This document shows, piece by piece, positions 32,507 to 64,000 of a DNA stretch of 64,000 nucleotides. Within the stretch, counting starts at the first letter, position 1. Each line of letters starts with the position of its first letter. Origin of the DNA: Pyrenula massariospora (Eukaryota > Ascomycota > Eurotiomycetes > Pyrenulales > Pyrenulaceae); assembly GCA_021030905.1 (NCBI GenBank), contig JAGFMI010000006.1:2046001-2110000 (forward strand), in the 5' to 3' direction. The notes beneath the pieces were generated by a model. It did not search any database. It was not told where the DNA came from and worked only from the letters and a program-made list of their open reading frames with translations. Both the position numbers and the translations under genes were made by a program.

Positions 32507-34635
32507 TCAAGTTCTACCCTTCTTGCTCTCCGGAGCTTCAGTCGCTGTCTTCTTTGTAAATGGCATGCATAGCACGAAGACTAGAGCCGTGAGCGCTGCC
32601 GCTATCGGGAGCCAAAATGTTCTCTGAAAAGACATAACATACTGCGCGAGAAGCGCATCATGACCCCCAGACGTTCCCAGCAAAGGCTCGCTTTTTGCTA
32701 ACGAGCTCGGGTCGGCAATTAGCTTGACGGCTTCAATGGAGGGTATTTTTAAATTATGGATCAGGTGATAACGAAGTGTGTTGATAAAGATAAGAGTTGC
32801 TATTTGAGTAGACAAGGCTCTATGGATTGACGTAAGCTTGGGCCTATCATTGAATCAAGAGATTCGAAATCAAATATTTGGTACGTACCCGCCAAAGATT
32901 TGGAACATCGTAACGATACCCTGTGCATAGGGAATATCGTTACCTTTTAGGATTGCCTGCGGGCATTCGACTATGGACAAAACGCATAAGCCAAATCCAA
33001 GGCCGGCGAGGCATTGGAAGCCCTCGAGCTGTGCTAGGGATGCCTGCCGGTCGAACGTCGTGAACAGGCCGGAGGCAACGGCATATATCGAACTTCCTAT
33101 TATGAAGTAGACATTAAGAATTTTCAGAAATGACAGAGACACCAGCATGATGACGGATCCCGCAAATATGGATAGCACGTATGCGACCGTATGTGATCCG
33201 CTAGATACTGGAGATTTGCCCAAAACAATCTATCGATTGTCAGTAATGGAATATTACAGCGGGGTTCGACCAAGTACCTGCAGGAATAATGGAAGAAAAT
33301 TGATGTGAGTCGCTAGTCCCGCGGACAAGCTGAACATAAGTCCACAACAGGCCCAGATCAATCGGTGACCAAAGATTCGCATTGGTAGCAGCGCTTCAGT
33401 CGTGGACAACTTTTGTTGGACTAGTAACATAACTCCACCGAGCCCGGCAATGCTCCAAACGATGGCAATTGTCGATCTTCGGGAACCATCATTTTGAACC
33501 AGATGAAGGCCAAAGAGGACGCAGAAACTCGTACCCGTGAGCAAAAAAGTCCCGAGGATATCAAGCTCTAAAATCCGATCTTTCAACCGCTGGCCGACTC
33601 GAGAGCTGGTACTTTCTGGAATCCTAAGGAAAAACACCATTGCACTGGCAATAACCGTACCAATTGGCACATTGACACCGAAACACCACCTCCAGCTCAC
33701 GTATTCGGTGATCACCCCTCCCAATAAAGGTCCCGAGGCACTACTAATAACTTTATGGCACTTAGCGGGAGCCGCAGCTTGAAGTGAAGAACCTACCTAG
33801 GATAGCAGAAACTGCATTGAGTAAGGCATTTCGCGCTTTTGGTGAGAAGCAGGCGGAGAATATTTGAAAGTGACCAGCAGACACTCCTGCAGTACCGATC
33901 CCGGAAATAGCACGGGCTGTGATCAAGAACCAGGAGGCATTCGACAATGCAGCCATGAGAGAGCCAGCTATGGTATTTAGGGAGAGAGTCAAAGGAAATC
34001 GAGGATATGGTCTCACCTTCAAAGAGCGCAAGGCTCCCAAGATACACTGGCTTGATGTTCCATCGAGAGTAGATTTGCCCAAAGATTGGCTGAAGCACAG
34101 CTTGAGGCAAGTAGTACGCAGACGCATACCAACCAACATCTCCGAGCGAGTGGAATCGTGCTGCGATCTTGGGCAATGCTGTCGCAATGATAGATTCATC
34201 AAGTTGAGTTATAAAACATGCAAGCAGGGCGGCAGCAGCAACAATGCCACTTGACCTTGACCATCCGGTTCCCTTGATAACATGTTCTTCGGGGGAAACG
34301 ATCGCATCGGACTGATTTGGTGCAATGACTGCCGCTGGGGCGTGAACAATGGACCATCTTTTCGGCAATTGAAGTGAAGTTGTGGCGTCATAGTCTGATA
34401 GGCGCCTCCATGTTTTCGAGCTGGGACGCTCTGGAAGTGGTGGGAGTGGTTTGAATAGATTCAGATCTTTGCGAGGTGCGGATTGGCCTTTTGGAACATA
34501 TGATACGGTCTTAGGCTTTCTTTTTGACCTACTTCCTTTGCTGCTTGTTCTGGAAGAGAGGGCATCGGCTCGCAGTGTGGCGGTTTTGTAATTAATCTGC
34601 TCGAATTCTTCACCATTGATCATTTCATAAGCCAT
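32507..34635 (-). CDS. DHA2-type MFS exporter (14 helices)
   Basis: Five exons by my reading: 34635-34017, 33967-33797, 33750-33278, 33229-32889 and 32843-32507, giving 646 residues. These are proton antiporters that export drugs or the host's own metabolites. A cytosolic tail of about 140 residues comes first. The membrane part opens IVAAAALLACFITQLDESII, with the DE pair typical of fungal DHA2 proteins. It continues GDVGWYASAYYLPQAVLQPIFGQIY, then the motif C-like GPLLGGVITEYVSWRWCFGVNVPIG. Later helices include FLPLFLQIVLGKSPVSSGSH. The exon 2/3 boundary could be drawn two ways (GTAGGT with an AAAG acceptor is preferred) and the exon 4/5 acceptor also has an alternative. An in-frame TTG at 34704 is not used. 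Its place beside the PKS suggests that it exports the cluster product or protects the host. Confidence 0.85.
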
Positions 34636-35480
34636 TATACTCCGCGGAGGTGAGCCACATCGCGTCACAGACGGCCAGCACCTGTGAACGTCTGGCGAAG
34701 GCAAGCAGAGTTTCTGGAGGCTCCGGTACCGTCCTTCGAAGCTTCAAACGAGTCCCTAGCGAAATCGAAAGGGATAGCTGATCTACCGCAAGGCTGGAGT
34801 CGACGCGACGATCGAATTGACGCTTCGAAGCCATTTTGCAGACCTGCAATCGAGACCAGGGCGGGAATTAGTTCTTGAAAAGCCCCCACATACCACATCA
34901 GCGAGATTATAACTCTTGCACTGCCACAGCGATGGAGGAGACTTGTTTAGGCGCAGTGTATCGAGTTTACGGTACCGTCAGTACCGTCAGCTGTATCGCA
35001 TTCATTAGTTACCAACACTTGGGGGCTGTTTGATCCTCATGCTACCAATTCTTTTGATTTCTGCTTTTGTGATCGATGACCCCGATGCCGAGACCTGATT
35101 TATTCACTAAGCTGCTTTTTGAAAGTGCTCTATGCGTTTCAGTACGCGATGCCCAATCGGATTAACCTGCATAGTAGGTGTAGCCGCAATCCCATACCTT
35201 CAACGCGCAGGAGTCAAGACCCTGTCATCGAACCAGGAGCCAGCAGCCTGCGTACACAATTGGAGAACTGGTATTTGGTATCGGGAGTTGTAGTTGAATA
35301 TTGCTTAACCCCTAATGGTCGCCCGCTAATCATCAGGCAAATTCTGCCTCGTAAATTAAATTTCCAATTGTAGTAAAAAATAGTAGTCGGTCTTAGATCT
35401 ATCCCTGAACGCCGGCTCCATCAAGGTGTGTGTGCTTGGGTCAGCTCCGACGATGGCAGACCCTGAGATTATCCTTCCAT
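34636..35480. promoter_or_regulatory. MFS promoter region and PKS 3' flank
   Basis: About 840 bp between two minus-strand cluster genes. It holds three copies of the core GTACCGTC (at 34726, 34972 and 34981), two of them in tandem. No coding frame is supportable. Confidence 0.4.
34972..34989. repeat. Tandem 9-bp element GTACCGTCA x2
   Basis: Two exact copies of GTACCGTCA abut each other about 340 bp upstream of the MFS start codon. A third, shorter copy (GTACCGTC) lies at 34726-34733. They could be a transcription-factor site; there is no direct evidence. Confidence 0.5.
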
Positions 35481-38400
35481 TTACACTACCTTCATATCGA
35501 GATATTTCTTGGCGCGATCCTCGTCTTCCACCGCGCGAGCCAAGAGTCCTTTCGCGCATAGCTCTCCGAGATCAAGAATACTGCCCGCGCCCAGCAATTC
35601 GAGAATGGTGATGTCAAGTCCAAACGTCTGCTTCCACCAGCTCCGGATCTCGATGGCCACTAGAGAATCAACCCCAGCATCTTTGAGCGAAACAGAAAGG
35701 TCGATTTCCTCCTCTGGTGGTTTGAGCAGGAATTTGAGCAGCTTTCTTGCAATTTGGTCGGCAAGAAGCTGCGATGTAGATTCTTCCTTGAGGATGTCGC
35801 GGTTCGCTGTGGCGCTCTGAAGCAAGTGCCTCAGTGTCTCATCGTCCGCACTTCTGCCTATGACCGCGCTTTCTGCTGTCTTTTCGACATTGTGGTAGAT
35901 GGCCATGCGACGATCTTTCCTCCACAGAGCCCTATTGTTCGAGTCGTTGAGATGATCGGCTAAGCGCATTGCGAGCACTATTTGCGACTTCTCCACGAAT
36001 GGTTCGCCGGCCCCTTGAACTGGTCGAGAGGTTCTGATTGCCAGTTGAAGGCCATCAAGTAGTTCCGGTTCGCGGATTCCGTAGCCATTGCCGGATCGCC
36101 ACCTTGCTAACTGACCAGGAGTTCTGGCAATATACCCAATATCTTCAATGACCCCAATGTCAAGAACTGATGCCGGCATGCCTCGGTCATGGCGATATTG
36201 TACGAATGCATCCATGAAGGAGTTGGCACTTGCATAATTCGCTTGTCCGGGGAAACCAACGATACCGGACATCGACGCAAGTAGGACAAAGAAGTTAAGG
36301 TCTGCCGCCTTTAGCGCTTCATGTAGATTCCAAGTTCCAGCCACTTTAGGAGCAACAGCCTTGTTCCACGCTTCGAAAGTCATTTCGCGAAAAGCCTGGT
36401 CTTCGAGCACCATAGACAATTGGATCACTCCGCGAATAGGAGTCGGCGCAGCTTCCACCGCTTCTCGCACGGACTGGGGACTAATGACGCTCCCTGCAAT
36501 GAATCGCACACTGCAGCCCTGACTTTGAAAATCTTCGAGTAGACGTTTGTCGGTGGTTGTTCGGCCAGCGCTGCGAGAAAGGAAAATTAATGATCGTGCC
36601 CCATGGTCGATCATCCACGACGCCATCGCGCTTCCGAGCCCTCCAAGTCCTCCTACAAGCAGGTATGACGACTCTGGATGAAAAGAAATAGGGCTGCGTG
36701 GTAAAGATATCAAGTTTGTCTTGGGGCTTGGAAGGTCATCAGAGATTGCAATCACGATTTTGCCGAGATGTTGGCCTTTCTGCATGTATCGAACACCATT
36801 TGCGAAGTCGCCGGCTTTGAATACATGCACTGGACGGATCGGATTGATATAGCCGGTTTCGCAGAGATTAAAGGTTTCTTGTAAAAGCCTGTTCCAGGAT
36901 TAGGACTTCGAAGTTCTCAAAGGCTGTTGACTAACCTCTTTGCAAGATCCTTTTTCTTGGTAACAACATGGTTGAGATCCACGCAGCAGTAAGATCGGTT
37001 TGCCTCAAAAAGATTCATTGCCAGTTTAGCATGGCCATGCAAGTCCCGTTTACCAATTTCAATCAACTTTCCAAACTCCGCGACGCACTCCCAGGAGGCA
37101 TGAAGTAGTTCGCCCGAGAGGGAGTTAAGTACCAGATCAACGCCGCGGCCACCGGTCTTTTTAAGAAGACGTTCCCGGAAGGATTGGTCTCTTGAAGTAA
37201 ATATGTGATCTCTTGGTATTCCGTAATTCGAGACTAGGTAGTCAATCTTCTCCTGACTGCCCACTGTTGCGTAAATATTTGCACCAATCATGCGGCTCAG
37301 CTCAATGGCTGCGATACCAACTCCACCGCAAGCAGAATGGACGAGTATTGTCTTGGAATATGTTAGTAACTCTAGGCTTTAGCAAAAACGTTCCGTCTTA
37401 CCTGGTCTTTTTCCAGACGACCTACGTGGATCAAGGAATATATCACGGTTCCGTAAACACATGGCATCGTTGCACCATCCTCAAAGCTGAGTGTATCGGG
37501 GAGTCTGACGCAATATTTGGGATCCGTTCTAACAACTGTAGCAAAACAGTCGGCGGCGAACGCAGCTACACGTTCGCCAATGACGATGTCATTGACATTC
37601 TTCCCAACGTTTCGAACAACTCCAGTGACTTCACCCCCCAGACCTTTTGCGTAAGCATCAATGATGCCTAAGGAAACAACCACATGCTAACATCGTTAGC
37701 CTAGTCAGCTTCAATTAGCTCTTTAAACTCACCGTGAAATTGAGACCCGCTGCGGAAACTTCAATTTCCACCTCATCATCGCCAATTATACCGAATGAGG
37801 CATTGTTCCACTGCACGGTATTTAGACGACCCTTTTGAGCTATATTCATGACCTTATGAGTGCTAGGGCCGTCTTCCGCAATTTCGCCGTCAACAGAGAA
37901 AGGGTAAAAGCGACCAAGATGAACAGTGCCTGAGGAAATGACAAATTCAAAGTCTTGTAGTAAGGTCCTATCCATAGGGGCAGCCCGCACCTTCCCAAGT
38001 AACCCAACAATCTGTCTTGAGTGGCATGCGGAATTGTCTTCGATCTCACATGTGGCGATGTTCACCAACAACTCTGACCGAAATGTTCGGATGGCCCCGA
38101 TTGACTGCGCAAAGCGCGGGTCTGTGCAACCGAATTGACTCGCACGAGTGACCCAGACAACTCGCGCATCGCCTAACGTCGTGATGAACTTCTGTAGGTG
38201 GTGGAAATCAACGGCAGACATTTCATGGAAGAACGGGCGATCGACATCGAGCAATGAAACGACATCTTCGCCAGTAGGTGTCCATTCATTTAGGTTTTGT
38301 ACCGTCACAGCGAGACCAACGTCAAGCAACTGGTCTCTAACAGCTCTGAAAAGGGGCGTATCATTCGTAGACAGTAGTGTGACAGGTTTCTTTGAAACCT

Positions 38401-41400
38401 CCTGTTTAGGCCTTGCAATCATCGTAGCATTGAGCTGGTATGGCTCCTCGCCATCCAGAAGAACGGAATCCAAGCTGAAATTGGAAAGCGTCATTTGTGT
38501 TTCCCAAATCTGTGGAGACACGTATGGTTCTGTTTTACGACCATCGGCTTCACCCATCCACCAACCGGGCAGAGTTCCCCAGATGTAATTCGAGAACTTA
38601 TTTTCGGACCACAGTTCTTGAAGCAAGAGTCTTCCATCAGGTCTCAGAAGTTTGTGGACATGAGCCAATGACTCCCGAAGGCTAGGAGTTGCATGAAGCA
38701 CATTTGTTGCGACGATCAGATCGTAAGAATGGGCCGCAAAGCCTTGAGCTAAAGGGTCTTTGCTTATGTCGAGGGTTCGATATTCCATGTTTGGCCATTC
38801 TTCGAAACGCTCTGCGGCAGCTGAAAAGAAGCCGGTGGAAATATCCGTATAAGTATACTTAGAATATGTTCTGTGACCTGCAGAAGTCCGAAGACCAGAA
38901 AGAATGGTGTTCGTCGTGCCTCCAGTCCCAGCACCGACCTCTAAAATAGTAAGATTGGGCTTGCTATGGCCCAGGAGGGAAAGGAAAGCCGAACGATCCC
39001 ATGAGTCGATTGTGGTATATATTTTCGTCAGGTTGTCATCCTTCATCAGAAGCTCTAAAGGATCCGCTACACCCTTGAAGACTTTTTCGCAGTTCTCGAG
39101 AATATCAGTCATGACGACCGCGATTTCTCGGAAGTCTGTCCTCAAGAGCTCAGTCTTCAGCGAAAGTATCGTTTCGTTAATGTCGGTCGGTAGCGTTCCT
39201 ACGTTTTTAGAACGTTCGGAAATCCAGTTATGGTATTTGGTGAGATGTAAACTATCAGAGGCGAACCCGCTTAGTCGTCTTTCTGTCTCGAAAACACAAA
39301 GATTGGTAAGCTCATTGAGCTTTTGAAAAGAAGCAATTCTATTTTCCATGACAGGTGGCGAAAAGAGTGGCTTCATCTCAAGCATATCAATATCAGGCAT
39401 CCAATTCAAGCGGGCGGCCGCATGCTTGTCATGGTTCTTGACCAATTCTTCTTCTACCTGGGATAGCTTTAGCCCGCGGATATGGAGGACGGTCTTGCCA
39501 GCTGAAGAAACCTCTCCTCGACCTTCGATCGAGCCCGATGGAGTTGAGGTGGCGGCTACGGAAAGATCCATGTCGGACTCACAGTTCCAGATGTCAATTG
39601 CTTCGAGTCTCGTTGGGAGAGCGAGCTTAGAAAATTTGCGCGGTGTTCCTTTAGTCATGGCGACGCCGAAAAGCTGAAGAGTGAAATCAATCGCTGTAGG
39701 GTGCATTGGGTAGGATTCTTCTTCCCGTGGTGTTGTTGAAATTGGCACCTTCGCAGTGGCGAAATTGTCGCTCGTGGAAGACCGAATGTCCTCCAAGCCA
39801 TTGAATGCTGGTCCGTAGTTAAGTCCCACGTGTCGCATCTGCTCATACCATCTTGTGGGCTCGACGTATCTAGGCGTGGTGCAACTCTCGATGCTAGAAA
39901 GCAATACATTTCGCTGACATCGAACTTGGCCTGTGCAGTGCTTGATCCAGGACCGGCCCCCGTAGGACGATACAGTGAACTCCCACCAGTCAGAATCTTG
40001 GATCTCTGTCCATGTATGCCGCCGGAAAGAAGTAATTATCTCGACCGGACGCTCTTCGTCAAGAACCATTGCTGTGCTTACGACTACGTTGGCGAGACTG
40101 TATCCTTCACTCGGTCCGTCGAGCTGTTGAGCCGCAGCTCCAACCATAGCAATGTATCCAGCCAGAGGGAAGACAACGTCATGTCGGACCTTGTGATCAC
40201 GGATCCATGGAGCATTTCGAATATGGAAGACGTTTCTCCAGCTTGGATTAAGATCAGTGCTCTCAGCAAGTCGAAGACCGAGGAGGTCATGGTGCGGATG
40301 CTTGCGCAAACGCCAGTCGCGGCTTAGCCTGCTCTCATACCAATAAGCCGCTCCATGGTCCCAAGAATAGATGGGAAGATCGACTAGGACAGAGCCTTCC
40401 GGGACAACCTTTTTGAAATCAACTCGGATCCCTTGGCTGTGTAGGCTACCGACTGAGTTGAGAAAAGTGTCAACACTATCTTGTCCCCGAACCAGTCCAG
40501 AGTTGTAACGTAAAGATTTGCCTAATTGACCCAGTATCTGTCGCAAAGGTCCTTTTAATGTTTCATGAGGGCCAATCTCGAGGTACTGAGTAGTTCGCTT
40601 CTCAGCTTGCACGAGATTACTGACTGCGCCTTTGAAGCGAACCGGAGAGAGAAGGTTCTCAACCCAGTACTTCGCATCCAGGGCTTCGTGTTCCCTTAGA
40701 GCGCGGCCTTTGACGCTTGAGATGAACAGTGTTCTTGGCGGTTTAGGGTGTATTGTGTTTGCCATCATTTCAAGGTACTTTTCGCCGACTACCGTCATCA
40801 GCGGGGAGTGGTAAGCAACGCTAACCTTTAGAAGTTTTGCAGCACATTCGGGGTTCGCATGCTTAACTGCCTTGACAACGTTTTCGACTGCTGCTCGGCT
40901 CCCAGATATGGTTACAGATGTCGGAGAGTTCTCACAGGCTACAACAGTGTCAGGAACGAGATAGACAGCAACCGCATCCCAGCTGAGACCAATAGCTGCC
41001 ATAGCGCCTTCCGGAGCATACATGGATGTAGCGATTCCCCGGTAATATGCGGCTTTGATTGCCTCTGTTGCTGTAAGTGCTCCTGCTGCAAAAGCGGCAG
41101 CAATCTCTCCACTTGAATGCCCAATCACTGCATTCGGCTTGACGCCAACGGCAGCAAAAGCTTCAACCATGGCGATTTGAAGAGCAGTACAGATAGGCTG
41201 CGAGTACTCGGCCTGATGGATCTTGCTCGTTTCAGCCGGTTGCAACACCTCGTTCTCAATGGACCATAGAGGTTTCTCTGGAAGGGTTTGGAGAGCAATA
41301 TCCATCGCCCGAATACTTTGGTAGAAGACATCGTTTGATTTGAGCATAGACCGACCCATCTCGGGCCATTGTGCTCCTTGTCCGGTAAATATCATAGTAA

Positions 41401-43029
41401 GTTCTGTATCCGTCATGGCTTTGTTGCTGACAAAACCGGCTGGAATTCCATCATTTTGTGCGAGGGAAAATGCTCGGCATGGCAGGTGCTCCCTTCTCAA
41501 GGCGAGCGTATAAGCGAGATCATGAACGCGCTCCGGATGCTTTTTCAGATATTCTTGAATTTTCTGAATTTGGCCTTGTAATGAAGCCTGAGTATTTGCG
41601 GAGCATAAGAGAAGATACGAGTTGTCTTCTGATCTCGTTAATTCTCTCTCAACTCCATGGGTTGCAGCGGATTCGAGAACAATATGCGCATTTGCGCCTC
41701 CGACTCCAAATGAGTTCAAACTAGCTCGTTCGCTTCTATCCTTCGGCCATGAAAGAGGAACTGTAGGCACTTTTAATTTCTTTTCAGCAAAAGGTATTTT
41801 AGGGTTGGGATTCGTAAACTTGATGTTTGGGGGAATGGTTCGGTTTTCAAGAGCGAGGGCTATCTTGATAAGTGATGATAGGCCGCTCGCACCCTCAGAA
41901 TGTCCGACGTTGGGCTTTATGGATCCAATATAGACTCCTTTCTCGCCAAATACGTTTCCGATAGCATTTGTCTCTAGGGGATCGCCAACTGGAGTACCTG
42001 TGCCGTGGCATTCGACGAAACCGGTCTCAGAGTAGTCCTTAATCTGGGCGCTTTCATAAGCACGCCTAATAAGCACCTCATGTGCGGCAGAGCTAGGAGT
42101 AGCTAGGCCAGGAGTCTTTCCATCACAATTGGTAGCCGTAGCTCTGATAATCGCTCTTATCGGATTTCTGTCTCTTATAGCGTCCGACAGGGGTTTGATG
42201 AAGACCATGTTAATAGCCTCCCCGCGTCCATAACCGTTCGCTGCTGCATCAAATGTCTTGCAAGATCCATCAGGTGACAAGACACCTTGTTCCATCATGG
42301 CTGATGTCATTGCTGGAGTCATAATTAGATTTGAGCCACCAATAAGTGCCGAAATGCAGTCGCCCCTCTGTATGGCTTGGCATGCTTCGTGCAAGCATAC
42401 CATGGCCGAGGAACATCCAGTTCGGATTGTCATACTGGGACCTAGTCACATGAATAAATTGGAAACGAGAAGGGCCTGCTTAACTAACCTGTCAGGTCCC
42501 ATTCGTAAGAGATTCGATTTGATAGAACAAAATCTCCTGTGCCAGAGATTCGATAGAGCCCATACTGTTGAGGGTCTTTGGCCATCATTTCGCACCAGTC
42601 CTCGCCAAAACTCCCTATATAGCATCCGATCTGTTTCCCACGCCAATTCACTTCGCCTGCGCTCTCCAGACACTCCCTTGCCACTTCTAAGAGCTGCCTT
42701 TGTTGGGGATCAACCTTCTCCAGCTCGCTCTTTGTCATGCTGAAGAAGCTGGCGTCTAAGGATCCCAAATCCACGTCATCTAGGAAATACCCTTGTTCGG
42801 CTTCGATTGTCCCGGACTTTTTTGATTTTGATAAGAATGCTGCGCTGTTATATCTGGATGCTGGAACTGGACCGATACTGTCTCCCTTTGCGAGAAGAAA
42901 CTCCCATAGATCTTGCGGCGATCTTAAGCCTCCTGGAAGGCGCAACGCCATGCCGCATATTGCAATTGGAAACGAGCCGACACCGGCAGAATCGCTGCCA
43001 GCCTCAGAAGGAGGCCACAACTCTCCCAT
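35481..43029 (-). CDS. Highly reducing type I polyketide synthase (KS-AT-DH-cMT-ER-KR-ACP)
   Basis: Five exons: 43029-42489, 42441-37733, 37686-37402, 37351-36936 and 36888-35481, giving 2,452 residues. It should build a reduced, C-methylated fatty acid by iterative use of one module. KS: active-site TIRTGCSSAM, with ECHGTGTPVGDP and NVGHSEGASG. AT: TGQGAQWPEMG and GHSSGEIAAAF. DH: IRDHKVRHDVVFPLAGY and DFTLQ. Methyltransferase: ILEVGAGTGGTTNTIL. ER: spread over exons 2-4, with GLNFTHVVVSLGIID and the NADPH loop HSACGGVGIAAIE. KR: LLVGGLGGLGSAMA and QANYASANSF. ACP: KDAGVDSLVAIEIR near the end. No thioesterase, reductase or C domain follows, so another protein must take the chain. All catalytic residues I looked for are present, and the ER looks functional. 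The frame extends to a TTG at 43050; the ATG at 43029 is preferred. Confidence 0.95.
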
Positions 43030-43936: not shown

Positions 43937-43956
43937 ATGACTTCTGATATTCAGCC
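43935..43956 (+). repeat. 22-nt direct repeat, copy 1 (3' side of the P450 gene)
   Basis: Matches 46034-46055 at 21 of 22 positions in the same orientation; both copies contain TGATATTCAGCC. The pair encloses the P450 gene. A matching CCAGGTA occurs just upstream of each copy (43926 and 46014). Confidence 0.65.
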
Positions 43957-44083: not shown

Positions 44084-44090
44084 TAAATCT

Positions 44091-45772
44091 TCACGATATC
44101 CTTCTGACCTGCGCCAGTACCGCCTGATCTGGCAGGCCGACTCCCATCCCCTGCCCGATAGCTTTCGGATCCTCAGTAGCAGCTTTTCCGTTTGAGTCCA
44201 CGAATCGAGGCTCCTTTATCTCCAGAATCGCCAACACCAAAGCCGTTGCAGCCAGTATTGCAGACTTGGCGTAAATACGTCCAGGACATCCAATCGATCC
44301 CGTTCCGTACGGGAAGAAGTTGCTCGACTTGACATCTTTGACGTGGAGGAATCTTTCAGGCCAGAACTCTGTTTCCGGACGGTCCGGCTGTGCCCATACG
44401 GCTGGATCTCGGTGAGCGGTCCAGGTGGGTGCCACTACGAGATTCCCGGCTTTGAGGAGTCGGCCGTTGAGGTCCACGTCGTTTTTAAGTTGCCTGACTA
44501 GTTGTGCCGAGAGATGGTAGCGGAGGCACTCTGAGTAGAGAGAGTTGAGGTAGGGCATCCCATGAAGTCTGGTGACATCGAGACAGAGGTCGCGCTCGTT
44601 CGGACCAACACGCTTTAGCGCATCTTGGATCTCATCGGTGATACACTTTCGGAGATCTGGCCTTCGAAGTATCTCTATTAGCATCCAAGTTGTTGTGGGA
44701 ACAGTGTTGTCGTTTATGGCGAATGCTAAGCCGAGTTCAACTGAAGCTCGGCCCGACAGACTGAAACCCTCTCTCTTTAAAAGATCGTTCATTTCCGTGA
44801 CCACCCGGGAAGGCATGTCGTTACTCTCATACCATGTCTGACCTTTCTCTCTGATGACCGAATCCTTGGCTTCGTGTCTTTGAAGCTCTTGGACGACAGC
44901 TGCGAGCAGTCGGTCTCTCCCGCGGATACCTCTTCCGCAAAGCCATTTAGGCATTCCATAGAGGAGACCTTGGCATATTTAGCTTGACGAAGAATGTACT
45001 GACAGATAGAAACCCACGCTTGAAAGAACCCGAGAACAGCCAATAATCTTCGGCGAAACCCTGATTATTCTCGATGAAATGCGGACCAAAGAGCACTGCT
45101 CCTGAAGCACATGTCATCACGTGCTGAACTAGCTTGTTGATGTCCATGCTCATCCAGTGCTTCTCAGTTGACGCTTGGAGTCCTCTCTCGAACATCCTGA
45201 TGAATTGCTCAACCATCGAGGAAGTGCAACGCTGCGCTGCTAAATCTGTATGATACATCTGATCCAACTTGCGCACCAGATCGGTCGCTTTCTGCGGGTC
45301 TTTCTTGAACGGCGCAGCATCCTTCGAAGGCATTCTGTACACGGTCTCCATGATTTGGATGGCTCTGGCATCGAAAGTGAGATTCTTCGAGCTATTGAAT
45401 ACTGCTTTCACATTCTCGGGTCCGTGTAGGATGTACATGTGTGTCGAAGCAAGCCGTATCAGCACAACATCTTTTGTTGACCTTCGGTTCTTTTGTCAGC
45501 AATCATCGCCGATGTCATTCTCGATATTGGTCCTACCGCGCGCACTCATACAAGGCGTGCGGATTGATAGCAAACTGAAGTCCATTGCCAATCCATGGAA
45601 GGAAATACGGTAGAGATACTGGGCGTCTGCTGTGTACCCACAGTTGGACTTTGTATCGAATAAATGTTGAGATATATGTGACTATGCATAGTGCAAGGAC
45701 ACACAAAACGCCTTTGAAAGTCCAGCTCAGCACCTCTTGCGCTGCAGGCTGCGCGACATCTATCATATTCAT
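44091..45772 (-). CDS. Cytochrome P450 monooxygenase
   Basis: Three exons: 45772-45537, 45481-45018 and 44968-44091, giving 525 residues. An N-terminal membrane anchor (GVLCVLALCIVTYISTFI) is followed by a proline hinge (RRPVSLPYFLPWIGNGLQF). The I-helix reads AFAINDNTVPTTTW, which resembles CYP7/CYP8-like and related fungal enzymes rather than the canonical AGxDTT. The ExxR motif is SECLRY. The heme loop FFPYGTGSIGCPGR supplies the cysteine ligand at residue 461. Its place between the PKS and the ligase suggests hydroxylation of the polyketide chain or of an amino-acid residue of the product. Both introns restore conserved strings (DVVLIRLAS and LLYGMPKWL). A pair of 22-nt repeats flanks the gene. 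Confidence 0.92.
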
Positions 45773-52500: not shown

Positions 52501-55500
52501 GGATGGAGTCAAAATTGCCGGTGTCGTCCTACCACACAGCGGTGCATACAAAAATCGCTTAACTGCATTCGTTGTGCTGAGCGACTATGCCATTCCTGAA
52601 GACATGCATGATCTCAAGACATTTCCTGGGCGCAACACTCTTCCTATCGTTTCAAGAATATCCGCCGTCAAAGACCGTGTCTCTGGGCAGCTTGCTGAGT
52701 ATATGGTACCTACTCTTTGGATTCCAGTTCAGTCTCTACCATTGACGATATCGCGAAAAGTTAACAGAAGGCGCTTGCAAGAATGGGCTGAGTCGATGGA
52801 CTTAGATCAGTACACGACGGTTCTTGACGACGCAACAAGCTTCGAGGCTGAATCTGAGATGTCATACCCGGCAATGGTCTTACAGGAAGCAGTCTCCGAA
52901 TCATTGGGAACGCCAAAATCCATGGTGTTACTTCATCGATCATTCGTTGGGTTAGGTGGCGATTCAATTTCCGGGATGCGAGTCATTTCCTCCTGTCGGC
53001 GGAAAGGACTCTCTCTGAGCGTCAGAGATCTTCTGCAAGGTCGCTCTATCCAACACGTAGCGTTAAGTGCGCAGCAAGATCGAAATCAGACGGACTTGGT
53101 CGAGGAGAGTTTCGAAGAGTGGTTCCCACTCTCTCCTATTCAGAAATACTATTTCGCATCAATTGCGGCCACAGAAGCCTCACCTCCCCACTTACGTCAA
53201 TTCAATCAAACCTTCATAGTTGACCTGACACGGAACGTCGAGGAAGATGCCCTTGCTGCTGCCATCAGGACCGTTCTAGAGCGGCATTCTATGCTCCGTG
53301 CTCGATTCCAGCGCAATGCAAACAATGAATGGATGCAGATGGTCTTAAAACCAAGTCACGCCCCGGAAATGCAAATTGCTCCTCTGAATTCCGTTGATGG
53401 CATCAATGAAGTCATTTGTCGTACAGAGTCTCAGATCGACATTGAATATGGTCCAGTGTTCCTCGCTGTTCTAATGCGACACTCTGGAGATCGACTGTCT
53501 CTCTTACTCTGTGCTCACCACTTAGTGGTCGACCTGGTCTCATGGCAGATTATTCTCGAGGATGTAGATGCATTACTAACACGAGGATCTCTGGCACATT
53601 TACAGTCTATGTCGTTCTCAAACTGGTGCCGGCTGCAAGCCCGGAAAGCCCAACATACAAGTCAGGGTGAGGTTGTTCAAGAGACGGAAATTGGTTTCGC
53701 GGTCGGCAAGTATTGGGGTATTGAAAACGAGAACTGCTACGGCGATGAAATCGATAAGCATATCACCATCGATTCCAACATTTCCGCAATGTTGCTTGGG
53801 AGATGCAATGAGCCTCTGCGGACTGAGCCTTTAGATATTTTCCTCACTGCTCTCCTCCATTCTTTCCACAAGACGTTCCGCGGACGGCATTTTCCAATCA
53901 TTTTCACCGAAGGTCATGGCCGCGGATCCACAGGGCTCGACGTAGATCTCACGAATACTGTGGGCTGGTTTACGAGGTTACTACCTATCCAGCCGCGCCT
54001 AGACAACCAAGATGGCATTCTAGATGTTCTTCGTAAGACGAAGGATTTTCGGAGAATGCCTGACGCAGACATATCCTCCTTTCCGTCACCAGCCTCAAGG
54101 AGCACTGACGACTCTGAGCCACCAGGCGACAATAACATGGAGATCTTGTTAAATTTCATTGGCAACGCCAAATTGTCCCATGCACCAGACTCTGTGTTTT
54201 CTATGCGAGAGGACGCCGCATGTCGCAAATCATTTGGCGGAAGCGTTCGCCGCTTTGCACTCTTCGAGATCACGATTCAGATTATCAGTGGCCGGATCCA
54301 TACTGTCTTCTCCTTTCATCGAGGCATGAAGTATCAAGGCAAGATCCAGCAGTGGATTCGAACGTATGAACAATCAATGACGGAAATGGAAGAAGCATTA
54401 GAGGTACTACAGCCATCCCTAACACTTAGTGACATTCACATGCCCTTAACGACCTATGATCAACTTGACGAAATGGTCGGTCAAGAGCTGAGGGTCATCG
54501 CACCACGATTAGACAACATAGAAGACGTCTACACATGTTCTCCAATGCAGCAAGGGATCCTCATGAGCCAGAAAAGAGATCCAAACGCTTACATTATCAA
54601 TAGTGTTTGCAAGATACGGCCGACAGATACCAAGTCTATAGAAGTCAATCAGCTGATCCAAGCCTGGGCGACCGTGATCGAGAGACACAAGGTTCTTCGT
54701 ACTGTATTCACGAGTTCTACCAATGTTAGTGGTTGCTATCAGCAGGTTGTTCTGAAATCTATACCTCCGAACGTCGTTCTTACGAATGGTTATGAGGATT
54801 CCGATGCACAAGATTTATTTGAGGACTGTTCTCCTTGTCATAGACTCACTCTCTCCACCGAAAATCCCTCAGAAATTTATTTCAAGCTGCAAATCAGCCA
54901 TGCGCTTGTAGATGCGACCTCCATCTCAATCTTGCTACGAGATTTCGCATGCGCTTATCGCGGACGCCGGTTCGACTCTGTACCGATGCCGTACCTTTCT
55001 TATGTGTCATACGTTGAGCAGCATGCAACTGAGCAGAGCATTACCTACTGGAAAGACTACCTATGCCATTCGCAACCAACACATTTCCCACGCCTTGGAA
55101 CAAGCTCAGTTTTTAATGGCCAAGTTGAACGTGTCGAGTTCAGAGAGAGTCGCCTGCTTTCAGAGTATTGTCGCAAGACTTCAGTGACACCGGCCAGCGT
55201 CTTTAAAGCCGCTTGGATGCTCGTTCTTCGCGTTTATACGGGCCAGAATGACGTATGTTTTGGTTATCTGACCTCTGGCAGAGATGCACAACTTAGTGGT
55301 ATTGATGATGCTGTCGGGCTATTCATCAACATGATGGTATGCCGGCAGACCATGGAAAGGTCGACAAAGATTATCGATATTGTGGAGAAAGTGCAGCAAG
55401 AAAATCTTTCAGGTCTCGAACATCAGTATCTATCATTAGCTGATATCTTGGCAAACGCGTCCCTGCCTGTGGATGCATTTAATACTGTCATGTCTTATCG

Positions 55501-58500
55501 AAACGATTTATCTCATGATTTGCCCGAAGGTGGACCATTAGAGTTTGGGGATTTCGATGGGCAGGATCCCACTGAGGTATGTTGGTTCAAGAATTCTCCG
55601 AAATTTTTCTAAGAACTACAGTACGACATTGTAGTGAACATCGAAGCAGCTCTTCACAAATATGATATGTCATTACGCTATCGCCGTTCTGTTCTCTCGC
55701 CCTTAGCAGCAGCAAGTTTGGCAGCAACATTTGTGACAGCTGTCAAGTCGATCACTAGCGAGCGCCATCACTCTGTATCCGACTTGTCCTTGATGGCTGA
55801 AAGCAATTGCACATTAATCGACGGATTCAACGCTTCACGCCTAGACTTGGTGTGCGCAACTGTTCATGATCTTATTGCGAAGCAAGCGCTCATCACTCCG
55901 AAAGCCGAAGCAGTATGTTCTTGGGACGGCAGCTTAAATTATGAAGACGTTGACTTGCTGTCCTCGAACTTTGCAAAGTACCTGATTTTGCAAGGGGTAG
56001 GAAGCTCAATTAAGATCGTTCCTCTCTTATTTGAAAAATCTCTACCAGTGGTCATTTGCATGCTAGGCGTCTTGAAAGCCGGCGCTGCCTTTGTCTTCCT
56101 TTCGGTCAGTCACCCCGCGCAACGTCTCCAGACCATGATGTCGCGCATTAATGCTACACTTCTTCTTGCTAGTCCGAAGCAGACAGATCTTGTTCGTAGC
56201 TTCGGTTGTCAGGTTCTAACGGTTGACCTCAATCTTCTACTTTCGTTCCAAAATAGCGAGACGCCTCTCCCACGAGTCGAGCCAGACGCTACGGCATTCC
56301 TGATGTTCACCAGCGGAAGCACAGGAAATCCGAAGGGAATTCTTATATCTCATCAGTCAATCTGTTCAAGCGCTGTTGCTCACGGAAACGAATGGGGAAT
56401 TGAGCCTGGCACCCGAGTATTTCAATACAGTGCCTATACACACGATGTAAGCAAAACGGATACATTCACGACTTTGATTAGGGGGGCCTGCATTTGCATA
56501 CCATCTGAACACTCCCGTCTTAACGATATTGCAGCTTCTATCAGAGAACTGCGCGCCAACTGGTCCTTTATGACTCCAAGCGTTGCTGGTCTTATCCTAC
56601 CCAATGAAGTTCCAAGCCTGAAAACTCTTATCCTAGGCGGCGAGGCGCCTACCAGAGAGAATGTGCGTCGCTGGGCCGATCAATTGAAGTTAATAATTTG
56701 TTACGGGCCTGCAGAATGCTCAGTCTATGCATCAGGAACCAAGGCACTAAATATTACGTCTGATCCGTCAAATATTGGTCAGCCTATTGGATGCAGAATC
56801 TGGATCACTGATCCCTTAGACTATAAAATTCTTGTCCCGCTTGGAGCTCTCGGTGAGGTCCTCATCGAGGGCCCTGGAGTTGGTCAGGGCTATTTTCAAG
56901 ATACAGAAAGGACACAAAATGCTTTCGTACAAGGCGTCCCGTGGGGGCAAAGCCAACGCAACCGATACTATAGATCTGGAGACTTAGCACGATGGCTGCC
57001 AAACGGAACCATTTCGTTTGTCGGCCGCCGTGACAAACAGATCAAGCTGCACGGGCAACGGTTGGAGCTTACAGAAGTTGAAGGTCATATCCTTTCCCTC
57101 ATGCCAAGCATTGAGCGTGTGGCGGTTGAGCTTGTTTCACTCAATAGCAAGCATGTGCTTGCCGCATTCCTTATCCCGACCTTTCCCCCCGCTACAGACG
57201 CCAATAGCATTCTCCTGCCGGTGAATGAGTCAGAAACGGCTGTGCTCAGAAATATCCGAGCGTCACTCGTCGATCTCCTACCGCAATACATGGTCCCCGC
57301 AATGTATGTGCCCGTAAGAATGCTTCCGATCACGCACAACGGTAAACTTGATCATGAAGCACTGCAGAGCCTGATTTCTAGCATGGATGACCACGTGTTG
57401 ATGCAATATATGCTTGCTGATCATTCGAACAAACAAGCCGGCTTATCCAGAAGCCAGAAAGAGCTCCGTGGTCTCTGGGCAGCTTATTTGGGTCTTCATG
57501 AGCAGTCAATTCGTGCGAATGACAGCTTTTTTAATCTGGGAGGCGACTCGGTATCAGCAATTAAATTGGCTGGTGTTGCCCGCTCAGAAGGTTCTAATCT
57601 CACCGTTTCTGACATCTTCCGTTTTCCTATTCTTGCTGACATGGCCGTTCTCTTCCACAAAGGAAGCGAAGGGAGCGAAATCCAGAGAGCGCCAGAGCCC
57701 TTTTCACTGTCTGGCCTCGAGACAGACCGGCTACAATCCGATCTAGATACTATATGCAAGACATGTAGCATCGCCAAGTGTGATATCGAGGATGTTCTAC
57801 CATGCACTTCTCTTCAGGAAGGGTTGATTGCTCTCACTGCTCGATCCCAATCTGCCTATGTATCACGCAAGATTTTCCGTCTTGGTCCAATCATAGATCT
57901 GGAAAGATTTCAGGCAGCTTGGGATATGATGGAACAGTCCTTACCGATCTTGAGAACCCGAATAGTTAGCCACGAGTCTGGGTCCCTGCAAGTCGTCGTT
58001 AGACAATCATATGGCATTTTACAAGATATCGGCCCCCTAACAGCCGCGCTTGAAAGAGACCAAAAGCTGCCTATGACTTATGGTACTCCATTACATCGCC
58101 TGAGGTTAAACACTGAAGGTTCGGGCGCACGATTCTTTATTTGGACCGTTCATCATGCTCTTTTTGATGCATGGAGTGCTGCTAAGGTGCTTGAATGCGT
58201 AACCCAAGCCTATAAGCAGAAAACGACACCAGATGTGGCTCCCTTTTCTTTGTTCATTGCGCATATACAGAGCCAAGACAAGTCTATTCAAAGATCTTAT
58301 TGGCATTCACAATTCACTGGAGGACATCCTCAATCCTTTCCACCGACAAGCACCTCACAGGGTCCAATAGATTGCCCTACTTTTAAGGCGCATAAAGAGA
58401 TCTCTTTACACGGCAAACACGCTTCTGATATTACGCTATCCACTATCATCAGGGCAGCTTGGTCGATGCTCATCGCTAAGTATGCCGATTCCGATGACGT

Positions 58501-61500
58501 TGTATTTGGCGCTACACTATCCGGGCGAAATGCTCCAGTCTCTAGAATCAGCGATATGGTTGGACCCACAATTGCAACCGTTCCTGTTCGAACTCAGATC
58601 AAATGGAATGAGAAAGTATCGCTTTTTTTGCAGAAGGTCCAAGACCAAGCCACAGACATGATTCCATTTGAGCATTTCGGCCTACAGAACATTCAGCGAA
58701 TCTCGGCTGATTTTCGGCAGCTGCTCAATTTGCAGAACCTCCTTCTTATTCAACCGCTGGGGGACGACGACGTGCAGCTGATCCCTGGTATGTCTGTGTG
58801 TGTCTCTGGTGGAGACGAGGGATTCGATACATACCAGCTTATAATGGAATGCCGAATTTCTCGCGACTCATCGAAAGTTGTAATTGAAGCGCGCTCTAAC
58901 TCTTCAATCCTCACTCCGAGGCAAACGCAGAGGATGATTGATCAATTTGTTAACATCCTCCGCCAATTGTGCTCCGCCGGTATGAAAGAGACCGTCGCTG
59001 ACATTACACTTGCTAGTCCGGAAGACGTAGAGTCCATGATCGAATGGAACAGTGCAGAACCAGAAAAATTGCAAGAATATGTTCATCATATGGTGTCAAG
59101 ACAAGCTCAGAAACATCCGCAAAGGATAGCGCTATGCTCTCGTAAAGGGAATCTTACGTACAAGGATCTAGATGTGCTCTCCGATCGCCTCTCGCATCAT
59201 TTAATTAGCAACGGTGTTGGATCAGGAAGTCTGGTCCCCTTCTGTTTTGACAAGAGCAGATGGGCTATAGTTGGGATATTGTCTATTCTCAAGACGGGTG
59301 CTGCAGCAGTTCCTATTGGGTCTCAGTCTCCATACCACAGGATTGATGCACAAATAAGAATGCTCAATGCTAGTATAATTCTTGTCGATGAGAAGAACAA
59401 AGAAAAGGCACAACATCTAGGTCTATATCCGGTTCTCGTCAACGAATCGATAGAAGACTTTCTTGAAAGCTCGTACCATCTACCAACGTCGAACGTCATT
59501 GCAAATGAACTTGCATTTGTGGTTTTCACTTCTGGCAGTACGGGTGACCCGAAGGCTATCATGCTTCAGCACGACTCAATCTGCACAAGCGCCAGGGCTC
59601 ATGGAGCGGCCCTTGGTCTTGGACCCGAGTCACGTGTGCTACAGTATGCAGCCTACACATTCGACGTTATGATCCAGGACATATTTACAACTCTTATTCG
59701 AGGAGGGTGCGTGTGCATTGTATCTGAGAACGATAGATTGGATATCCCAAACCTGATGACATCGATCAACGATCTACGAGTCAATTGGGCTTGCCTTACT
59801 TCAACTGTTGCGAGCCTCTTAAAGCCGTCCGAACTCCCAACTCTCAAGACTCTAGTGCTTGGTGGTGAGCCCGCCAGTCAGGAGGTGATTTCGAATTGGC
59901 AAGAGCATGTCACCCTCCACAATGTCTATGGACCCGCTGAAGCGTCAATATGGTGCTCTTGTAACCAGGATCTTAGAAGCAGCAGTCATTATTTGAACAT
60001 TGGCAAGGGCCTTGCTAGCAAACTATGGGTCGTTGACGCCAAAAATCATCATCAACTCTCACCTGTTGGCTGTGTTGGAGAGCTACTGATCGAAGGCCCT
60101 CTTCTTGCTCAAGGCTATCTACATAATCCAAGGCTTACAGAACAACATTTCATTGCGGAGCCTGAATGGGCAGCCAAGCATCCTTCTTGCAACGGTCTAA
60201 GAAGATTCTACAAAACAGGAGACTTGGTGAAACAACTAGAAGATGGCTCTTTGTCATTTGTGTGCCGGAAAGACTCTGAAGTCAAAATATCCGGGCAGCG
60301 CGTCCATCTCGGAGACATAATCCATCACCTAAAACTTTCTTCTAACCCGAGCCTAATATCTCAGGTAGCTGTTGAATTATTCAGTCCGGAGAGAGAGAAC
60401 AGCGTTGTACTAGTTGCGTTTCTTGAGATTGAAAGTCATGAAGAAAATGCTATTACGACCGAATTAAGGAAGGAGCTTGTGCAGTCAAGAGATCGTCTAC
60501 GAAATCATCTGCCCAGTTACATGATACCTTCTATCTTTATCCCTTTGAAGTGTTTACCGCGAAACATGTCCGGAAAACTTGACCGCAAGCAGCTCTACAA
60601 TCGCTTTCAGGATCTCTCGAGCGCAGATTTGAGTGCCTGTAGACTTATTATTGACCACAGGACGCCTCCAAGATCACAAATGGAAGCAGACTTGGCGAGT
60701 CTCTGGTCAGGGGAGCTGGGCATCAGCAACCCGATCGGAAGAGAAGACAACTTCTTCGAGCTGGGTGGCGACTCTATCCGTGCAATGCGCCTCGTCGCTG
60801 GTGCGCGAGCCAAATCGATCCACATCACTGTAACGGATGTCTTCCAGGTTCCGGCGCTAGCAGACCTTGCGGCAAGGGCAGAAAAACCTATGTCTAAGCG
60901 GGAATCACCATACAAACCGTTCAGCTTGTTCGAGCGAGTAGATCAGGAAGGCATCGATGAGATTGCCGAGATCTGCCAGCTCCCACAAATTGACATCGAT
61001 GACATATTTCCCACCACTGCGCTTCAAGAAGGACTGATCGCTGCTTCGAAGCGACGTAAAGGAGCATACGTTTCGCAGAGGGTTTTCAAGCTCGCAGAGC
61101 GTACATCAACCGAGCATCTAAGGTCAGCTTGGAACCAAGCTGTCGAAGATCTGCCCATCTTGAGGACCCGGATTGTAACAACAAGCTCCGGAACATATCA
61201 GGTAGTTGTGAAGCAGCGACCAGTATGGAACGCAGGTCCTTCACTCGAGCTCTATTTAGCTGAAGATATGAACGAAGATTTTTTAAATGGTGCACCGCTA
61301 GTACGTCTTGCTATTATTGAAGACTGGAGACCAGGTTGCAATATCGACAGGTACTTCGTTCTCACTTCTCATCACGCAGTCTACGATGCGTGGAGTGCAG
61401 GCAAACTCCTCGAGTACGCAACTGCTGTACTCCAGAAGAGTTCCACACCAGAGACTGTGCCGTTTTCCCATTTTCTACACTATCTGGATAAGAGAGACCG

Positions 61501-64000
61501 TCCGGCCCAGGAAACCTACTGGAGAAATCAATTGAAAAATGCACCCGAAAATAGTCTATTCGTGACGGCTTCGGACTCTTCAACGACTTGCATGAAGAAT
61601 ATCTCCTGTCAAATTAGAACCCGGCGCAATTCAACATCGGGAGTCACGTTGGCCACGGTGCTGCGTGCTGCATGGGCATTAGCGTTGGGAAAGCAATCAA
61701 AAGCTAGGGAGGTACTATTTGCAGTAACCTTATCAGGAAGAGAAGCTCCTGTCGATGGCATTGAAAGTATCATCGGTCCCCTCATCACCACGGTTCCTGT
61801 CCGGATAGAAATGGATTTAGAACTACCTGTTCAACAGTATCTTCTAAACATTCAAGGTCAATCTACTGGGATGATACCTTACGAGCATTTTGGGATGCAA
61901 AATATTCGCAGACTGGGCTCTGAAATTCAAAGTTCTATCGATAGCATAAGCCATTTGCTTGTGATCCAGTCTAACGGTGGACAAGAAACGCCTGCAACCT
62001 TCTTTGACGGAGAATTTACCAGAGTAGCATCCTCGGGTTTTACCACATTCCCTTTCGTGCTCGAAGCTGGCCTTGACGCTGACAGCGACATCACCAATCT
62101 TGTTGCAACTTACGACAGCTCCGTCGCGACCGATTCGGAAGTGCAGAAGCTAGTCAAGACTTACATGCACATAACAGAACGCATACTTGACGCGCCTTCC
62201 GCTGCCATTCTGACTAAACTTCTTGTCCAGCATGATGAGTGTACGGAAAATTCTGTAAACAATACAGAACATAGCCATCAAGCAGGGCTGTATCAGCAAG
62301 TCTCACGGGGTCCATTTAGTCAGGATATACCCCAGGTATCGCTACAGTCACCAGTTGAACTGAAATTACAGAGTTTATGGGCTGATGAATTTGGCGTGGA
62401 TCCTGAGCGAATTGGAGCTCGCAATGACTTCTTTCACCTTGGAGGTGATTCTGTTGCTGCGATGCGACTCGTGGCAGCTTTGCGATCCCAAGGCCTCCGA
62501 CTGAGCGTTGCCGATGTATTCCAACATCCTAAGTTCTCAGAAATGGCAAAGACAATCGCATCTATACGGAAGGATGAATCACCGCCTATACAGCCATTTG
62601 ACCTTTGGATTGAGGATCGTTCCAAAAGAGATGAAGCTTTGCTGAACATCTCGCGTCAGTATGGAATCTTACCTACAGACATTGAGGATATATATCCATG
62701 CATCCCCCTTCAAGAAGCGACAATCACACCCCAGCAAGCTTCCACCCACGTCGTACGCAAAGTTTTCAGGATTCCCCACGATCTCCATCTTGAACACTTC
62801 AAGGTAGCATGGCAACGAACAGCGGATTCGTCTCCAATCCTAAGAACCAGGATTATCCCGTCAGACGACAATGCTATGCAACTAGTCGTCAAGGAGAAGT
62901 TGGAATGGATGTCATCCACGTCACTGGCTCACTACCTGGAAACTGACACAAGAGCTCAATTTACTTATAACACTCGCCTTGCAAGGTACGCTCTGATCCA
63001 GGATGCTTCTGGTTCCTATTTTGTTTGGACACTCCACCATTCAATATACGACGGCTTCAGCATGACTTTAGTACTGAAGCAGGTATCTCGCATGTACACA
63101 CATGGGCACCTAAAAGCTGCTTTACCTTTCAATCGCTTTGTCGGTCACTTAGTCTCGAAGCCACTAGAGTCAATGGGTCCTTACTGGCGCTCACAGCTTG
63201 CGGGTTACTCATACAGAGCATTCCCACAGTCTCAACTTGCAAGGTCGCCTACTAACGAACCTCCGCGTCATTTCACAAGAAAGGTGGGTATGAGCGGCTT
63301 CAGGTCCTCAGCGCCCATTGCAGCAGTGCTAAGAGCAGCATGGGCTCTTCTTATAGGCCAATACTCTTCCGCAGATGACGTTCTATTTGGAGCAGTCCTG
63401 TCTGGCAGGGACATACCCTTAGACGGGATCATGAATGTTGTGGGACCGACCGTAACTACTGTTCCGGTAAGGATCAGGATTGACTCCCAGAACGGGACTG
63501 TCGCAGAACTCCTGAAATCCACACATCTGCAAGCAGTTGATATGATACCCTACGCTCACGCTGGAATTCAGAACATCCGTCAGTTATGTCGTGGCGAGTG
63601 TGATACAGTCAACGTCGACAGTCTGCTGGTCATTCAGCCTTCCGGGCCTGAGCCAACAAATTTCTTAGGTCTGGAAGAGCTTAAGTCACCTTCACGGAAG
63701 CTGGGGACTTTCCCACTGGTGGTGGAAATTTTCCTGGGAACTTCTCGATGTCATGTCAATATGTATGTCGAAAATTCGGTCCTTTCCGCCGTTGAGTGTG
63801 AAAGAATTCTGAATCAATACACTCATCTAATTCAGCAACTTGCAACCGCCGATCCCGATACGACATTGACTAATATGAGTTTCATGTGCCCTGAAGATAT
63901 GGAACAAATTAAAGAATGGAATAAGGACCTTAGGAATCCTGTGGCGTCATGCATTCATGAGATTGTCATTGCGCAGGCTCTTAAATTCCCTGAGCTTCCC
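49507..64000 (+). CDS. Nonribosomal peptide synthetase, T0-C-A-T-E-C-A-T-C-A-T-C-T-C-A..., 3' end beyond window
   Basis: Exons 49507-50955, 51014-55576 and 55622 onward, open to the window edge; at least 4,797 residues. Domains by position: T0 (LDNGGDSLTAI, Ser47), C1 from 49,890 (SHTIIDATS), A1 51,240-52,800, T1 (LGGDSISGM), E1 53,110-54,390 (HHLVVDLVSW, EGHGRG). Then C2 54,510-55,770 (SHALVDATS), A2 55,850-57,400, T2 (LGGDSVSAI), C3 57,770-59,030 (HHALFDAWS), A3 59,080-60,600, T3 (LGGDSIRAM), C4 60,990-62,200 (HHAVYDAWS), T4 at 62,350-62,550 (LGGDSVAAM) with no A domain before it, C5 62,670-63,890 (HHSIYDGFS), and the start of another A domain. Both introns split the same spot of their C domains (PTD|YDL and PTE|YDI). 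All A domains keep the SGSTGxPK loop and the C-terminal lysine. The ATG at 49507 is preferred to a GTG at 49438. Releasing domains lie outside. Confidence 0.95.

What the first reader, a model, noticed from the sequence alone, without database searches (positions are those of the whole stretch)
32507..64000. Candidate lipopeptide gene cluster: reducing PKS, acyl ligase and an NRPS that starts with a carrier domain
The five genes together fit one assembly line: a PKS with ACP but no release domain, a stand-alone adenylating ligase, and an NRPS opening T0-C1. In the echinocandin/pneumocandin and emericellamide pathways this layout produces N-acylated peptides. Here the downstream domain order (E after the first module, then an A-less module) does not match any pathway I can name. 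The product may be new.
Basis: partly seen in the sequence, partly recalled or inferred. Interest (0 to 1): 0.85.

Follow-up and report, generated by a model that had tools for sequence, protein, structure and literature searches.

The report
Fungal lipopeptide cluster, one A-less module
A fungal gene cluster probably makes a small ring-shaped fatty peptide in the way already known for emericellamide-type compounds, but one of the five stations of its assembly line lacks the part that picks its amino acid, so a neighbouring part must probably do that job.

Summary
Five adjacent genes (MFS transporter, highly reducing PKS, P450, acyl ligase, NRPS) lie between a TrkH transporter gene and a bZIP/CRM1 pair. 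The NRPS runs 3.3 kb past the window. Complete, it is a predicted 5,892 aa: T0-C1-A1-T1-E-C2-A2-T2-C3-A3-T3-C4-T4-C5-A4-T5-CT.

E directly after module 1 is not unmatched: published passages report it for the emericellamide, scopularide and W493-B synthetases, and EasA's reported 18 domains in five modules would equal this order plus one A domain. The departure is the A-less fourth module: about 511 aa shorter than modules 2, 3 and 5, C and T motifs intact, no A remnant by Pfam. C4 groups with C3 and C5 of the same protein, which favours excision in place. A-less modules have precedent (AM-toxin AMT1, siderophore synthetases, SNOG_09081).

Best reading: a cyclic lipodepsipeptide, probably with five residues, T4 being charged by a neighbouring A domain. 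Product, loading domain and orthology to EasA-D were not testable here; no fungal protein collection or MIBiG was available. New variant of a known kind.

The parts
32507..34636 (-). MFS transporter, probable product exporter; several predicted introns, exact splice sites not settled
   Evidence: MFS_1 on two exon frames (3.7e-10; 1.7e-9; TRI12 there is below its cut-off); junction candidates; DNA read by eye
35481..43029 (-). Highly reducing PKS, 2,452 aa in five predicted exons, KS-AT-DH-MT-ER-KR-ACP, no release domain
   Evidence: Pfam; splice junctions; spliced model open, with KS Cys, AT GHSSGE, MT LEVGAGTGG, ER GGVG, KR GGLGGLG, ACP GVDSL
44091..45772 (-). Cytochrome P450, about 520-525 aa by two intron choices; tailoring step unknown
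   Evidence: Pfam p450 1.6e-30 on the main exon; gene model; best PDB matches ferruginol synthase, CYP3A5, CYP51, then CYP7A1
46402..48306 (-). Stand-alone adenylate-forming acyl ligase, 567 aa in five predicted exons
   Evidence: Pfam AMP-binding and AMP-binding_C; gene model; best PDB matches 4-coumarate-CoA ligases, over residues 211-566
48307..49506 (.). Divergent intergenic region between ligase and NRPS
   Evidence: Start codons at 48306 (-) and 49507 (+)
49507..64000 (+). NRPS, part inside the window; gene continues to 67288 (5,892 aa, predicted introns 50956-51013 and 55577-55621)
49510..49720 (+). T0: N-terminal carrier domain, Ser47 at 49645 (approximate bounds)
   Evidence: Pfam PP-binding 2.6e-6
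49879..51247 (+). C1, starter condensation domain, SHTIIDA motif; contains intron 1
   Evidence: Pfam Condensation
51248..53110 (+). A1-T1, A code DVQDVASINK (approximate bounds)
   Evidence: Pfam; code by alignment
53114..54500 (+). E domain: HHLVVDLVSW and EGHGR motifs intact
   Evidence: Motifs; Pfam calls it only Condensation; no E-specific NCBIfam match; in the tree it lies apart from the window's other C domains on a long branch
54521..57680 (+). Module 2: C2-A2-T2, code DVTFIGCVYK; C2 spans predicted intron 2, which holds the in-frame TAA
57788..60900 (+). Module 3: C3-A3-T3, code DVQCVGVIWK
60998..62560 (+). Module 4: C4-T4 without A; C start to carrier serine 484 aa, against 994, 995 and 996 aa in modules 2, 3 and 5
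   Evidence: Pfam up to E=1 finds only Condensation and PP-binding in C4-T4-C5
62684..64000 (+). Module 5: C5 and the first codons of A4; A4-T5-CT continue outside the window to 67288 (A4 code DAQNVAGINK; CT motif SHAQYDG)

Best explanation
A fungal lipodepsipeptide assembly line of the emericellamide/scopularide type. The PKS makes a reduced, C-methylated, probably 3-hydroxy acyl chain. The ligase activates it and, directly or through CoA, it is placed on T0. C1 joins it to residue 1, which E may epimerise; modules 2 and 3 add two residues. T4, with no A domain of its own, is charged by a neighbouring A domain of the same protein (A3, or the A of module 5), so residue 4 repeats residue 3 or 5. 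Module 5 adds the last residue and CT closes the ring, probably on the acyl hydroxyl. The P450 oxidises chain or ring; the MFS protein exports the product. Shown: genes, domain order, motifs, absence of A in module 4. Inferred: substrate flow, loading of T4, ring closure, product. Not shown: expression.
For: Gene set and order. Complete NRPS frame and domain order. Same T-C opening with E for residue 1 in three synthetases, and 18 domains for EasA (passages of PMC4515620 and PMC3901194). Same PKS layout as PKS2 and EasB. For a working module 4: C4 HHAVYDAWS and T4 LGGDS intact, frame open through 3,891 codons, no Ns, C4-to-C5 gap of 448 nt like three gaps of 421-469 nt in another synthetase of this genome on contig C29 (my subtraction of match coordinates), and the AMT1 precedent. 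For loading without an acyltransferase: the rafflesfungin paper proposes transfer by the AMP-ligase to the first carrier, the fusaristatin cluster is said to lack acyltransferases, and a besC mutant still made beauveriolides in reduced amount; all from passages.
Against: No EasC-like acyltransferase or thioesterase was found in the frames scanned (all 26 window ORFs of at least 200 aa plus smaller ones), although emericellamide and scopularide clusters have an acyltransferase and the W493 B cluster a thioesterase. The scopularide paper calls the function of the EasA E domain unclear, since glycine is achiral, so E here may also be idle. No expression or metabolite data. Orthology to EasA-D not testable. 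Module 4 could be skipped or dead. Substrates cannot be predicted: the four codes equal none of the eight rows (six distinct codes) in PMC6518819, and a text search for them found 0 papers.
Confidence: 0.75

Rival explanations
1. Module 4 is bypassed: C4-T4 is a structural spacer, the chain passes from T3 to C5, and the product is an acylated tetrapeptide.
For: Only four A domains. Shorter fungal lipodepsipeptide synthetases exist: BesA lacks two modules compared with EasA (passage of PMC7471007).
Against: C4 and T4 motifs are complete, and C4 is as similar to C3 and C5 as these are to each other (33-34%), with no sign of decay.
Confidence: 0.2
2. The missing A domain is an assembly error, and the real gene has a complete module 4 (an ordinary 18-domain EasA-like synthetase).
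For: The gap corresponds to almost exactly one A domain (about 511 aa); repeats in NRPS genes can be collapsed by assemblers.
Against: C3, C4 and C5 are 33-34% identical, T2-T5 38-42% and the A domains 39-46%, too diverged for collapse; no Ns and an open frame across the joint.
Confidence: 0.07
3. The NRPS is a pseudogene: the in-frame TAA at 55610 is real rather than intronic.
For: The TAA exists in the genomic frame.
Against: A 45-nt intron with GTATGT donor and CAG acceptor removes it and restores a YDI junction in C2, as intron 1 restores YDL in C1; the spliced model has no other internal stop.
Confidence: 0.05

Closest known systems
Emericellamide cluster easA-D, Aspergillus nidulans (PMC3901194, PMC4515620; passages)
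   Same: HR-PKS of the same domain set, separate ligase, NRPS opening T-C with E for residue 1, five modules, no TE
   Different: easC acyltransferase has no counterpart found here; 18 domains against 17, one A fewer here; P450 and MFS genes here. Sequence identity not testable.
Scopularide cluster NRPS1/PKS2, Scopulariopsis brevicaulis (PMC4515620; passages)
   Same: Same opening, E for residue 1, five modules, same PKS layout, ligase
   Different: Second E in module 3; acyltransferase and transcription factor in the cluster; five A domains
W493-B cluster NRPS32/PKS40, Fusarium pseudograminearum (PMC10967133, PMC4515620; passages)
   Same: T-C opening, E for residue 1, acyl-CoA ligase
   Different: Six residues; thioesterase in the cluster
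Fusaristatin A cluster PKS6/NRPS7, Fusarium graminearum (PMC10967133; passages)
   Same: PKS plus NRPS plus P450, no acyltransferase
   Different: Three modules; no ligase named in the passage; P450 proposed to serve precursor supply
BII-Rafflesfungin cluster, Phoma sp. F3723 (PMC6518819; passages)
   Same: HR-PKS of the same layout, AMP-ligase proposed to load the first carrier of the NRPS, CT end
   Different: Eight A domains, E domains in late modules, type II thioesterase
AM-toxin synthetase AMT1, Alternaria alternata (PMC8102738; passage)
   Same: Fungal cyclodepsipeptide synthetase with a C-T module lacking A; the preceding A is predicted to charge two carriers
   Different: The A-less module is the last one; no acyl starter described in that passage
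SNOG_09081, Parastagonospora nodorum (PMC4205913; passage)
   Same: Listed as A-T-C-T-C-A-..., an internal A-less module in a multimodular NRPS
   Different: No N-terminal T-C opening; product unknown

Membership tests
Emericellamide/scopularide-type lipodepsipeptide cluster | HR-PKS KS-AT-DH-MT-ER-KR-ACP without release domain | tested here: met
Emericellamide/scopularide-type lipodepsipeptide cluster | Stand-alone acyl ligase | tested here: met
Emericellamide/scopularide-type lipodepsipeptide cluster | Acyltransferase (EasC-like) in the cluster | tested here: not met
   No such Pfam match in 26 of 26 window ORFs of at least 200 aa, nor in the smaller window and flank frames scanned; many frames under 200 aa were not scanned
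Emericellamide/scopularide-type lipodepsipeptide cluster | NRPS opening T0-C1 with E after T1 | tested here: met
Emericellamide/scopularide-type lipodepsipeptide cluster | Five complete C-A-T modules | tested here: not met
   Module 4 has no A domain
Emericellamide/scopularide-type lipodepsipeptide cluster | Terminal C domain, no TE | tested here: met
   CT with SHAQYDG, stop at 67288
Emericellamide/scopularide-type lipodepsipeptide cluster | Sequence orthology to EasA-D | not testable with these tools
   No fungal protein or MIBiG collection held
Synthetases with A-less C-T modules (AMT1, siderophore type) | C-T module without A, motifs intact | tested here: met
Synthetases with A-less C-T modules (AMT1, siderophore type) | C domain descended from siderophore-type C-T modules | tested here: not met
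   C4 groups with C3, C5 and C domains of contigs C5 and C18 (fork 97/99), not with the six C domains of the contig C29 synthetase; that C29 is siderophore-type is inferred from spacing only
Synthetases with A-less C-T modules (AMT1, siderophore type) | A neighbouring A domain charges the extra T | not testable with these tools
   Needs biochemistry

The most novel reading that the evidence does not exclude
An acyl-starter synthetase of emericellamide layout lost one internal A domain cleanly and still works, because an A domain of an adjacent module charges the orphan carrier. It would be a natural single-domain excision in mid-line that leaves four specificities for five residues, one of them repeated, and the product would be a new lipodepsipeptide.
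Probability: 0.45. Interest if true: 0.5.

Novelty: new variant of a known kind. Interest (0 to 1): 0.36.

Why it matters
Engineers of peptide assembly lines want to know which domains can be removed or shared. An A-less module in the middle of an otherwise standard lipopeptide line would be a natural test of A-domain sharing between neighbouring modules, with a simple readout (a repeated residue). If expressed, it also points to an acylated cyclic peptide that may be uncharacterised.

Tried and rejected
Species: the 5.8S rRNA family gave 0 matches in the assembly; a CRM1 exon matched one PDB sequence over the threshold (4fgv/4hzk, recalled to be Chaetomium thermophilum) in two stretches, too little to name a class. 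The genome has no relatives in the collection. A thought that it might be a lichen fungus, from its many ketosynthase matches (115 exon-level matches, not genes), has no test behind it; a paper search on lichen lipopeptides gave nothing usable (listing only).

Considered and rejected: repeat collapse by the assembler; origin of module 4 from a siderophore-type C-T module (tree). That tree is partly weak: 7 of 18 inner branches are open, C3+C4 has 82/85, E and CT sit on long branches. Its 21 rows are the seven C-like domains of this NRPS and 14 of the 20 other matches; six (L002, L004, L005, L007, L015, L031) were left out beforehand, and L013 bears a misleading row name (it lies on contig C29, away from the synthetase). 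Remnant of an A domain between C4 and T4: none at E up to 1.

Without result: text search for the four A codes cut to seven letters, 0 papers; domain-string search listed 10 of 18,497 papers, one holding the string, and its ranking is capped; NCBIfam gave 2 families for E and 5 for C4-T4, all far under their cut-offs, and no E-specific model; CGG-N-CCG motifs showed nothing shared among the five stretches examined. L012 duplicates part of the window.

Full report
What is there. The window is G000:C30:2046001-2110000 of a 37.8-Mb assembly in 33 contigs. Short introns, gene content and genome size suggest a filamentous fungus, whose name I could not establish. Pfam scans of stop-to-stop frames identify, from left to right, an MFS transporter, a PKS, a P450, an adenylate-forming ligase and an NRPS. 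Left of them lies a TrkH cation transporter (29.0-31.7 kb), right of them a bZIP protein (L009) and CRM1/exportin (L010). These neighbours appear to bound the cluster at five genes; all 26 window ORFs of at least 200 aa were scanned (20, six), but many smaller frames were not.

The NRPS is cut by the window. Its frame ends at window coordinate 67288. Two predicted introns, 50956-51013 and 55577-55621, join the frames; the second removes an in-frame TAA. The predicted protein has 5,892 residues. Motif positions and Pfam matches give T0-C1-A1-T1-E-C2-A2-T2-C3-A3-T3-C4-T4-C5-A4-T5-CT. E carries HHLVVDLVSW and EGHGR, CT carries SHAQYDG. That these mark E and terminal C domains is recalled, except that HHxxxDxVSW for E stands in a passage of PMC6518819. 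No library used here has an E-specific match: Pfam calls the domain Condensation and NCBIfam gives only partial, sub-threshold matches.

The PKS is complete: 2,452 aa, KS-AT-DH-MT-ER-KR-ACP, with no release domain. The ligase (567 aa) is closest, among solved structures, to 4-coumarate-CoA ligases over residues 211-566. The P450's best matches are ferruginol synthase, CYP3A5, CYP51 and CYP7A1, which does not tell its reaction.

Module 4. The distance from the start of C to the carrier serine is 994, 995 and 996 aa in modules 2, 3 and 5 but 484 aa in module 4 (one search counts one more for the first three), so about 511 aa are missing. A Pfam scan of C4-T4-C5 up to E=1 finds only Condensation and PP-binding. 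C3, C4 and C5 are 33-34% identical to each other, which argues against a collapsed repeat, and there are no Ns. A tree of 21 C-type domains of this genome puts C4 with C3 (82/85) inside a group with C5 and three C domains from contigs C5 and C18 (97/99), and not with the six C domains of a second synthetase on contig C29 that also has closely spaced C domains (14 of the 20 other matches were used). Excision of the A domain in place is therefore more likely than import of a siderophore-type module. Seven of the tree's 18 inner branches are open, so this is support, not proof.

Against the literature. Only passages found by search terms were read, in 12 papers. PMC4515620: the emericellamide, W493-B and scopularide synthetases open with T and C and have E for the first loaded amino acid; it adds that the role of this E in EasA is unclear because glycine is achiral. 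PMC3901194: EasA has 18 domains in five modules. My arithmetic: T + five C-A-T + E + C = 18; the present enzyme is that minus one A. So the statement that E after module 1 matches no pathway is wrong, while the A-less module is the true departure. PMC8102738: AMT1 has A3-T3-C4-T4-Ct and A3 is predicted to load both carriers. PMC4205913: T-C partial modules are the norm in such siderophore synthetases, and SNOG_09081 is listed with an internal one. PMC10967133: fusahexin's last module is reused for two leucines, and the fusaristatin cluster has a P450 and no acyltransferase. Hence each feature is known; the combination was not found in those passages or in searches, which cover open-licence papers only and cannot show absence.

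Substrates. By alignment of the four A domains the codes are DVQDVASINK, DVTFIGCVYK, DVQCVGVIWK and DAQNVAGINK, anchored on core motifs with GrsA numbering as I recall it. None equals one of the eight rows (six distinct codes, eight positions) in PMC6518819. A1 and the A of module 5 are the most alike (45.9%). I make no amino-acid prediction.

What I conclude. A cyclic lipodepsipeptide line of emericellamide type is the best reading (0.75). It should not be filed as a member of the emericellamide family: two features tested here were not met (complete module 4, acyltransferase in the cluster) and orthology was not testable. It works like one.

Noticed in passing
G000 contig C29:739767-751922 (L033, L034): A second large synthetase with six C-domain matches, three of whose C-to-C gaps are only 421-469 nt, the size of A-less modules; spacing resembles siderophore synthetases.
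   Followed up: partly
G000, whole genome: 115 exon-level ketosynthase matches, and ten C-domain matches that lie within about 10 kb of a ketosynthase match: a genome rich in PKS and PKS-NRPS genes.
   Followed up: no
window 13807-16266 (+): 819-codon open frame with strong GC skew (-0.246 at 14-16 kb) and no Pfam match.
   Followed up: no
window 18822-19874 (-) and 18804-19883 (+): Overlapping open frames on opposite strands in the most GC-rich stretch (0.60); the minus one is a PLP-dependent enzyme (PALP 5.9e-70), the plus one has no Pfam match.
   Followed up: yes
window 17703-18551 (+): RmlD-type NAD-dependent epimerase/dehydratase (1.6e-30).
   Followed up: no
window 4865-7112 (-) and 8802-9677 (+): AAA ATPase and DUF7025 matches on adjacent frames, probably one gene, and a weak NPHP3_N match below cut-off.
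   Followed up: no
window 34724 and 34970: CGGTACCG palindrome twice upstream of the MFS gene, not in the other four stretches examined.
   Followed up: no
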